Shown: piece by piece, positions 665 through 1,384 of the stretch
Layout: the number at the start of each line of letters is the position of its first letter
Position numbering within the stretch: the stretch's first letter is position 1
Assembly: GCA_016926135.1 (NCBI GenBank)
Contig: JAFGPH010000055.1
Span: 1-5,350 of the forward strand
DNA from: Deltaproteobacteria bacterium
GTDB taxonomy: Bacteria > Desulfobacterota > DSM-4660 > Desulfatiglandales > HGW-15
Direction: 5' to 3'
Length of the DNA: 5,350 bases
Made by a program: the position numbers and the translations under genes
Notes under the pieces: generated by a model
Seen by the model: only the letters and a program-made list of their open reading frames with translations
Told to the model about the DNA's origin: nothing
Database searches by the model: none

Positions 665-1384
665 ATGAAAGACTTGAAGGTCGGGTGTGGCAAGCCAACC
701 GGTTCAAAGGTTGGGGAGCCGGCGGAAAAACAAAACACACAGGAGGCAGCACAGGAAAGGAAGGAGGTTCATATGGCGGCTGTGAGAGTTGGGGGGAAAG
801 CGCCGGATTTCGAGGCGCCGGCGTTTCAGAGTGGGCAATTCGGTCAGGTAAAGCTCTCGGACTATCTGGGCAAATGGGTGGTTCTCTGCTTCTACCCCGG
901 GGATTTCACCTTTGTCTGAGCAACCGAAGTGGCGGCAGTTGCCTCCAAATATAATGACTTTCAGAAGCTCGGCGCGGAGGTCCTCTCCATCAGCGTGGAC
1001 AGCCACTTCGTTCACAAGATGTGGCAGGACAACGAGCTTTCGAAAATGGTCAAAGGAGGAGTCCCCTTCCCCATGCTCTCGGACCAGACCGGGAAGATCG
1101 GTGCGGCCTATGGCGTGCACGATGAAGATAACGGCGTGGAGATGAGAGGGCGTTTTCTGATCGACCCCGACGGTGTAGTGCAGGCCATTGAGATCCTGAC
1201 GCCCCCGGTGGGTCGAAATGTCATGGAACTGATCCGGCAGATCCAGGCCTTTCAGCATGTGCGCAATACGAAGGGGGCGGAGGCCACGCCCTCCGGATGG
1301 GTTCCCGGCCGTCCGACCCTGAAACCCGGGCCCGATCTCGTGGGGAAGGTCTGGGAAGCCTGGAAGGTCGAAAGCGCGTTCTGA
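665..1384 (+). CDS. prxU: Selenocysteine-containing peroxiredoxin (AhpC/Prx1-like), TGA at 917-919 read as Sec
   Basis: Thiol-type peroxidase that reduces hydrogen peroxide and organic hydroperoxides in the cytoplasm. The frame is open on both sides of an in-frame TGA that falls exactly at the peroxidatic position: FYPGDFTFV-U-ATE versus the family motif FTFVCPTE. With the ATG at 665 the product is 239 residues, with U85 and the companion active-site residues P78, T82 and R161. The C-terminal PTLKPGPDLVGKV segment matches AhpC. The Pro usually following the catalytic residue is Ala. The position of the C-terminal resolving Cys of AhpC is Thr (T208), and the only cysteines are C8 and C75, so it looks like a 1-Sec enzyme. 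The alternative start, ATG at 773 with AAGGAGG 5 nt upstream, gives 203 residues with U49, the canonical AhpC length. The 36-residue extension carries a GCGKPTGSKVGEPA segment and a polar linker. Sigma-54 promoter upstream; convergent with the downstream regulator. A sequencing error in a Cys codon is the main alternative to Sec. Confidence 0.9.
761..767 (+). promoter_or_regulatory. Second ribosome binding site inside prxU (short-form start at 773)
   Basis: AAGGAGG is a near-perfect Shine-Dalgarno sequence 5 nt before the in-frame ATG at 773, where the conserved peroxiredoxin core begins. Both this site and the one at 651-656 look usable. Either the true start is 773, or two forms of PrxU are made. 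Confidence 0.5.
929..945 (+). promoter_or_regulatory. Candidate bacterial SECIS hairpin of prxU
   Basis: A small stem-loop lies just 3' of the TGA, inside the coding sequence, where SelB would bind. The arms are GTGGC (929-933) and GCCTC (941-945), with three G-C pairs, a U-U mismatch and a closing G-C pair. The apical loop GGCAGTT (934-940) begins with GG. The loop starts 14 nt after the TGA. Bacterial SECIS elements typically carry a G in the first two loop positions, and the E. coli fdhF element also has an unpaired U in the upper stem. A competing fold pairs GCAAC (920-924) with GTTGC (938-942). The stem is short, so this is a prediction by eye. Confidence 0.45.

What the first reader, a model, noticed from the sequence alone, without database searches (positions are those of the whole stretch)
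665..1384. Peroxiredoxin with selenocysteine at the peroxidatic position
A TGA at 917-919 sits precisely where the catalytic Cys codon of AhpC/Prx1 belongs (FTFV-U-ATE), and strong peroxiredoxin homology continues in the same frame for 155 codons. Selenoprotein peroxiredoxins (PrxU) are known but rare. Standard gene calling would split this into a short N-terminal ORF and a truncated peroxiredoxin, so it is likely misannotated in databases.
Basis: partly seen in the sequence, partly recalled or inferred. Interest (0 to 1): 0.75.

Follow-up and report, generated by a model that had tools for sequence, protein, structure and literature searches.

The report
Selenocysteine peroxiredoxin PrxU, two starts
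This is a bacterial peroxide-destroying enzyme whose reactive residue is the rare amino acid selenocysteine, a known kind of protein that gene-finding software usually cuts in two, and its family also seems to keep a second, internal start signal that would make a shorter version lacking one cysteine.

Summary
TGA 917-919 lies in frame in an open frame 665-1384 that scores 406 bits (cut-off 270) against NCBIfam NF040737, PrxU. All 80 relatives kept from a scan of named genomes have TGA at the same codon. Just 3' lies a covarying SECIS-type hairpin, 930-947. SelA, SelB, SelD and tRNA-Sec occur in 23 to 27 of 30 relatives' genomes. The window's own genome is not held. The gene's final stop is also TGA, so UGA is read by context. 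PrxU has been known since 2001, so this is a new member of a known kind. The predicted misannotation is real: 118 of 120 listed database fragments end exactly before the Sec codon.

Going further, I found two features of the family that I saw in no passage read. First, a ribosome-binding site plus ATG inside the gene (761-775), kept in 79 of 102 distinct genes and beyond codon usage. Second, a conserved Cys8 in an N-terminal extension, almost exclusive with the usual C-terminal resolving cysteine. I infer two isoforms, with and without a resolving thiol. That part is untested.

The parts
665..1384 (+). prxU: Sec-peroxiredoxin, 239 residues plus stop, long form (26.1 kDa computed)
   Evidence: NF040737 406 bits, cut-off 270; translation; mass
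651..656 (+). ribosome-binding site of the long form (GGGAGG, 8 bases before ATG 665)
   Evidence: read; one search scores GGAGG here; 89 of 102 distinct long genes have a 5-mer or better before the first start
665..772 (+). N-terminal extension, residues 1-36: motif GC-x-[RK]-P-T-G within 1-20, then a variable linker
   Evidence: Cys8 in 100 of 100 sequences that have the region, of 121 aligned; synonymous codon change along the motif; strong matches only at PrxU genes in 14 of 15 genomes, none in the 15th; model pLDDT about 80 for residues 1-20, below 50 for 22-37
686..688 (+). codon of Cys8, candidate resolving cysteine
   Evidence: nearly exclusive with Cys at position 208
761..767 (+). 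internal ribosome-binding site AAGGAGG, 5 bases before ATG 773
   Evidence: kept in relatives beyond codon usage
773..1384 (+). proposed short form from internal ATG, 203 residues (22.2 kDa computed), lacks Cys8
   Evidence: translation from this start is inferred, not shown
887..889 (+). codon of Cys75, function unknown
   Evidence: Cys in 121 of 121 aligned
917..919 (+). TGA read as selenocysteine (residue 85), peroxidatic position
   Evidence: 80 of 80 relatives have TGA
930..947 (+). SECIS-like hairpin: 7-pair stem (one C-U mismatch here) plus a covarying pair closing an invariant GU
   Evidence: 121 cells changed on both sides against 32.5 in shuffles; covariation 0.526 against 0.138
1286..1288 (+). 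codon of Thr208, where typical 2-Cys peroxiredoxins have the resolving Cys
   Evidence: aligned to peroxiredoxin 2 and relatives
1382..1384 (+). terminal TGA stop, so UGA here is read by context
   Evidence: frame ends with the family profile

Best explanation
The gene encodes PrxU, a Prx1/AhpC-type peroxiredoxin whose peroxidatic residue is selenocysteine. SelB carrying Sec-tRNA binds the hairpin that starts 10 bases 3' of the UGA and makes the ribosome read it as Sec, while the gene's last UGA stops translation. The selenolate attacks a peroxide and the resulting selenenic acid is resolved by a thiol (established peroxiredoxin chemistry, not shown here). The resolving thiol most likely sits not at the usual C-terminal site but at Cys8 of an N-terminal arm. 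A second ribosome-binding site and ATG in the flexible linker would also give a 203-residue form without the arm, so the cell could make armed and unarmed subunits from one mRNA. Likelihood by step: Sec insertion about 0.97; internal start used about 0.7; Cys8 as resolving residue about 0.5; mixed oligomers about 0.3 (pure inference). The confidence below is for PrxU with Sec at residue 85.
For: Sec: NF040737 at 406 bits; TGA in 80 of 80 relatives; hairpin with 95.6% of cells paired, 121 double-sided changes against 32.5 in shuffles, 8 to 33 when slid; SelA 27/30, SelB 27/30, SelD 23/30, tRNA-Sec at 63 bits or more 23/30, all four in G001, genome of the closest relative L001. Internal start: AGGAGG at proper distance before an in-frame Met in 74 of 102 distinct genes against 17.7 +/- 3.3 (largest 30 of 2000) when synonymous codons are redrawn from each gene, and before 0 of 520 downstream Met codons; 22 of 31 against 6.4 after thinning below 85% identity. 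Cys8: Cys in 100 of 100 sequences that have the region; of 124 distinct proteins, those with the N-terminal Cys motif have Cys208 in 2 of 105, those without in 10 of 19.
Against: The window's own genome is not held, so its Sec machinery is untested. The window hairpin has one mismatch, folds alone no better than shuffled sequence (z -0.43), and matches no Rfam family; two of five covariation measures are unremarkable (93 and 37 of 500 shuffles reach them). The genes are related: thinned below 70% identity only 3 remain and the start signal is no longer significant (289 of 1000 draws reach it). Seven of 102 genes have only a weak or no internal site. Of the 19 proteins without the N-terminal motif, 7 lack Cys208 too, besides two with broken reading frames, and 6 of the 10 with Cys208 have another Cys right after the start Met or one residue on, so the swap is not strict. 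Two genes have both cysteines. No coordinates were available to measure the Cys8 to Sec85 distance.
Confidence: 0.9

Rival explanations
1. Pseudogene or sequencing error: TGC or TGT was misread or has mutated to TGA.
For: A single change separates TGA from a Cys codon. Cys forms exist: 16 of the 120 listed database hits have C at this column.
Against: 80 of 80 relatives, from independently assembled records, have the same TGA, and a covarying hairpin follows it.
Confidence: 0.01
2. UGA is reassigned genome-wide to Trp or Gly (code 4 or 25), as most listed database copies of the protein suggest.
For: 103 of the 120 listed database hits show W and 1 shows G at the position.
Against: The gene itself ends with TGA, as does the neighbour 3286-4188, and the relatives carry Sec machinery. 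Peroxidatic Trp would be dead. The W copies are best read as gene-caller artefacts, many on short contigs (inference; their DNA was not read).
Confidence: 0.02
3. The internal AGGAGG-ATG is not a start but a relic of gene fusion, or a pause site; only the long form is made.
For: Short PrxU genes without the extension exist, so the site could be inherited from them. Translation from it was not observed.
Against: A relic should decay, yet it is kept beyond codon usage, with an in-frame start codon in 102 of 102 genes and spacing 8 or 5 in 85 of the 95 with a 5-mer or better. One gene keeps the DNA signal while the peptide reads KGG instead of KEV (L060).
Confidence: 0.25
4. It is a 1-Sec enzyme resolved by an external thiol; Cys8 does something else, such as interchain bonding as in PRDX4.
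For: No Cys at the usual resolving site. The top-ranked structural match, tied with many, is human PRDX4, whose N-terminal extension also bears a Cys (its role is recalled). 9 of the 19 proteins lacking the N-terminal motif lack Cys208 too, 7 once two with broken frames are set aside.
Against: Near exclusion of the N-terminal Cys and Cys208 (2 of 105 against 10 of 19) fits replacement of one resolving residue by the other.
Confidence: 0.4

Closest known systems
PrxU of Peptoclostridium (Eubacterium) acidaminophilum (Biol Chem 2001, doi 10.1515/BC.2001.123; paper not held, seen only in reference lists)
   Same: TGA at the same position, an N-terminal extension with GCARP, AGGAGG followed by an in-frame ATG at the same place, the same hairpin.
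   Different: The record annotates 240 residues. I recall that the paper gave 203 residues and U47, which is what the internal start gives (203 aa, U47, 22.4 kDa). It is a Bacillota record, while the window's closest relatives are titled Deltaproteobacteria.
NCBIfam NF040737 peroxi_PrxU
   Same: Scores 406 bits over nearly the whole profile, extension included.
   Different: No difference found; its one-line description names no second start (the model's own documentation was not seen).
Typical 2-Cys peroxiredoxins (AhpC, human PRDX1-4)
   Different: Sec for Cys; Thr at the C-terminal resolving position; Cys8 in an N-terminal arm.
Bacterial SECIS elements of the fdhF type
   Same: Hairpin shortly 3' of UGA with a GU in the apical loop (recalled for fdhF).
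   Different: Loop here is closed by a covarying A-U, G-C or U-A pair; no Rfam family matches.

Membership tests
PrxU (NF040737) | Score over curated cut-off across the profile | tested here: met
   406 against 270 bits, profile 1-232 of 233
PrxU (NF040737) | Peroxidatic Sec encoded by in-frame UGA in PxxxTxxU | tested here: met
   TGA 917-919; 80 of 80 relatives. That Sec is really inserted needs an experiment.
PrxU (NF040737) | SECIS element just 3' of UGA | tested here: met
   Covarying hairpin 930-947; against: single fold z -0.43, no Rfam match
PrxU (NF040737) | Host decodes Sec (selA, selB, selC, selD) | tested here: inconclusive
   Own genome not held; 23 to 27 of 30 relatives' genomes have each part
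PrxU (NF040737) | Thioredoxin-dependent peroxidase activity | not testable with these tools
   Needs assay
Typical 2-Cys peroxiredoxin | C-terminal resolving Cys (CPxGW) | tested here: not met
   TPSGW at 208-212
1-Cys peroxiredoxin (Prx6) | No resolving Cys at all | tested here: inconclusive
   Long form has Cys8 and Cys75; the short form keeps only Cys75

The most novel reading that the evidence does not exclude
PrxU genes of the long type are two-in-one genes: a conserved internal start in the linker makes, from one mRNA, subunits with and without an N-terminal resolving cysteine, so the ratio of two ribosome-binding sites sets how a selenoperoxidase ring is resolved. The Cys8 arm would be an N-terminal site for a resolving residue in the Prx1/AhpC group (I recall, without a source in these calls, that reviews mention N-terminal resolving sites elsewhere among peroxiredoxins).
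Probability: 0.4. Interest if true: 0.62.

Novelty: new member of a known kind. Interest (0 to 1): 0.42.

Why it matters
The gene itself is one more PrxU, but it shows how badly the family is recorded: 118 of 120 listed fragments stop at the Sec codon (709 were found) and 103 of 120 listed full-length copies carry W there. The internal start and the swap of resolving cysteines are testable with simple mutants and would explain why the founding PrxU and its present database entry differ in length (the published length is recalled, not read). If true, one gene makes two selenoperoxidase forms with different resolving chemistry in many anaerobes.

Tried and rejected
Pseudogene, sequencing error and code reassignment were rejected (see rivals). 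Rfam with gathering and E-value thresholds gave nothing useful. Single-sequence folding of the window did not show the SECIS convincingly; RNAalifold with default scoring found only its inner part; the pair counts on the alignment did show it. Viral contigs gave no relative. I looked for natural split genes, where an extra stop would part extension and core: four long matches with an extra TAA or TAG were opened (G080, G136, G146, G216) and none has a stop in the linker. Only L045 has one, after an apparent frameshift, which may be an assembly error. Gene neighbours gave no constant partner: of 61 upstream genes scanned (74 found), Pyr_redox_2 was hit in 5, Fur and Rhodanese in 4, catalase and rubrerythrin in 3, desulfoferrodoxin in 2; of 60 downstream genes (73 found), no family exceeded 4. 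The N-terminal motif was sought outside PrxU in 15 genomes and not found at E below 0.17; in the protein database the 120 listed hits all carry the motif and 118 end at the Sec codon (709 found, the rest not seen). Paper searches for an internal start or N-terminal Cys in PrxU showed none in the listings or in the passages opened (passages); the founding paper is not held. Rows dropped: one search failed to parse L108, L110, L111 and L113 and left out 2 records without the motif C-x-x-P (from these should be L045, frameshifted, and L058, which has the Cys but Leu for Pro); one search failed on L027, L131, L137 and L140 and removed duplicates. One search was the same table with duplicates and is superseded. 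The 102 genes were chosen by that motif, so Cys8 and Pro11 in them prove nothing; I use for their conservation.

Full report
What is there. The + strand frame 665-1384 is open except for TGA at 917-919. Reading that codon through gives a 239-residue protein with Pfam AhpC-TSA, Redoxin and 1-cysPrx_C domains and NCBIfam NF040737 peroxi_PrxU at 406 bits against a cut-off of 270, over profile positions 1-232 of 233. The codon falls opposite the peroxidatic Cys of solved peroxiredoxins. The gene also ends in TGA (1382-1384), and so does the neighbouring frame 3286-4188, so UGA is not reassigned.

Relatives. A scan of genome contigs found 580 stretches, 567 of them encoding relatives, and kept the 80 best, 67 to 81% identical. 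All 80, and the window, have TGA at this codon. By record title they are mainly Deltaproteobacteria and Desulfobacterales MAGs, but also Thermodesulfovibrio, KSB1, Calditrichota, Spirochaetes, Anaerolineae, Cloacimonadota and others. In 297 genomes of the phylum of G008, 95 have a PrxU match over the cut-off (0 of 14 control genomes). By my count of its rows over the cut-off, 82 full matches begin at profile position 1-3 and 81 of these have an internal TGA; 22 begin at position 14 or later and 16 of these have one; one more is a fragment, G053 (the position of the stop was checked only in the genes later read).

Database state. Of the 120 best database hits listed (7988 found), 103 have W, 16 C and 1 G at the Sec column (which counts the query as one more C). 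I read W and G as TGA translated by gene callers under codes 4 and 25 (inference; the sources' DNA was not read). With the N-terminal part as query, 709 short proteins were found. Of the 120 listed, 118 end in FTFV, the residues before the Sec codon.

SECIS. In the alignment of 81 sequences (77 distinct) from the TGA on, columns 14-21 pair with 24-31 (window 930-947). 95.6% of cells pair (shuffles 75.6%), 121 cells are changed on both sides (shuffles 32.5), and the covariation score is 0.526 (shuffles 0.138; slid versions 0.057 to 0.174). The innermost pair, around an invariant GU, is A-U in 54, G-C in 21 and U-A in 1 of 77. Against it: the number of pairs with a double change (5) and of further pair types (15) is reached by 93 and 37 of 500 shuffles; the window alone folds no better than shuffles and has a C-U mismatch at the pair 17-28 (17 of 77 sequences are unpaired there); Rfam has no match. 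The sequences are related, so the shuffle counts are not probabilities.

Sec machinery. In the genomes of L001-L030, over the cut-off: SelB 27 of 30, SelA 27 of 30, SelD 23 of 30, mostly itself with an internal TGA. For tRNA-Sec, 26 of 30 are over the gathering score, but scores of 47-50 look like ordinary tRNAs; 23 of 30 have 63 bits or more. Of the 14 control genomes, 2, 1, 2 and 5 are over the cut-offs for SelB, SelA, SelD and tRNA-Sec. G001, holding the closest relative, has all four. The completeness of these genomes is not given. The window's own genome is not held.

Second start. The window has AAGGAGG, five bases, ATG at 761-775 (expected 0.02 in the window). The same signal lies before the peroxiredoxin core in the relatives. 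In 102 distinct long-form genes, AGGAGG stands 3-12 bases before the internal Met in 74. Redrawing synonymous codons from each gene gives 17.7 +/- 3.3, at most 30 in 2000 draws, and 0 of 520 downstream Met codons have it. Taking the best start codon of the region, 79 of 102 have AGGAGG or longer and 95 of 102 a 5-mer or longer, with spacing 8 in 66 and 5 in 19. Thinned for identity: 22 of 31 against 6.4 (below 85%), 8 of 14 against 2.2 (below 80%), 3 of 6 against 0.7 (below 75%; 7 of 1000 draws reach it), 1 of 3 against 0.29 (below 70%; not significant). The first start is signalled too: of 102 genes, 89 have a 5-mer or better, 12 do not and 1 had no start in reach. Both signals are therefore kept. 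The linker that carries the internal site is predicted disordered (residues 22-37, pLDDT below 50), which leaves room for a DNA signal.

The extension. In the alignment of 121 proteins (query and 120 listed hits), Cys8 is Cys in all 100 that have the region; the other 21 do not reach it. In 30 hand-picked sequences G7, C8, P11 and G13 do not vary. In the 102 genes, which were chosen by the motif C-x-x-P, the residues of the motif use their synonymous codons freely, so the extension is translated and under selection as protein. Strong matches to the extension were found only at PrxU genes, in 14 of 15 genomes searched; the next hits have E 0.17 or worse. The model gives residues 1-20 pLDDT about 80 with a strand at 10-15, so the arm may dock on the core.

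Resolving cysteine. Typical 2-Cys peroxiredoxins have CPxGW where the window has T208-P-S-G-W. Among 124 distinct proteins, Cys at that place occurs in 2 of 105 with the N-terminal Cys motif and in 10 of 19 without. Two database proteins, P0019 and P0021, also show both. Two of the 19 (L045, frameshifted; L108, with an in-frame TAG inside the core) are long forms with broken frames, leaving 10 of 17. Six of those ten have another Cys directly after the start Met or one residue on, whose role I did not study. I infer that Cys8 took over the role of Cys208; the 7 short forms with neither show the exchange is not strict, and phylogeny was not modelled. A Fisher test on the earlier count with duplicates ignores relatedness and I do not rest on it.

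The founding PrxU. P. acidaminophilum prxU has a like extension, internal AGGAGG-ATG and hairpin and is annotated from the upstream start (240 residues). From the internal start the product has 203 residues, 22.4 kDa and Sec at 47. I recall 203 residues, about 22 kDa and U47 from the 2001 paper, which is not held. If my recall is right, the protein described was the short form.

Literature. Passages of PMC1794560 list peroxiredoxin among 25 bacterial selenoprotein families with 12 Sec members. Passages of PMC13188914 and PMC9312934 list it with TxxU, above the headings of predicted families. [quoted passage not shown] Passages of PMC5302317 and PMC5719442 sort peroxiredoxins by presence and place of the resolving Cys, the latter as central or C-terminal. 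None of the passages seen mentions a second start or an N-terminal Cys in PrxU.

Verdict. The Sec peroxiredoxin is real and of a known kind. The two-start, two-cysteine arrangement is, as far as these searches go, a new and testable reading, supported by sequence only.

Noticed in passing
G005:C307, G010:C277, G012:C174, G027:C239: A SelB match lies within about 130 bases of a tRNA-Sec-like gene of 55.7-59 bits; three of the four genomes hold a stronger tRNA-Sec elsewhere (not G012). In G012 and G027 the SelB match covers only the first 350 positions. It resembles the allo-tRNA and SelB pairs I recall from the literature.
   Followed up: no
window 1439-2812 (-): PAS, sigma-54 activator and Fis-type regulator convergent to prxU; target unknown.
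   Followed up: no
window 3286-5348: MTHFR-like gene followed by an HdrA2-like flavoprotein. The closest homologue found of the former (71%) lies on the same contig as prxU in G001 (contig C106; loci L085 and L125).
   Followed up: partly
window 1-53 (-): Start of a gene with a good ribosome-binding site, MEMRVAVTTRGNDLDAEV by eye, like NifX/NifB-type proteins by recall.
   Followed up: no
L130, L132, L134, L138, L141, L143, L145: Short PrxU-like forms with neither the N-terminal motif nor Cys208, and Tyr or Phe at position 75, five with Sec and two with Cys at the active site.
   Followed up: partly
L133, L135, L136, L142, L144, L146: Short forms with Cys208 that also carry a Cys at residue 2 or 3; role unknown.
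   Followed up: no
L108: Long PrxU with an in-frame TAG in the core as well as the Sec TGA; pyrrolysine, suppression or error not tested.
   Followed up: no
position 75 of PrxU: A Cys ten residues before Sec (121 of 121), where the three peroxiredoxin 2 chains aligned have Phe; role unknown.
   Followed up: no
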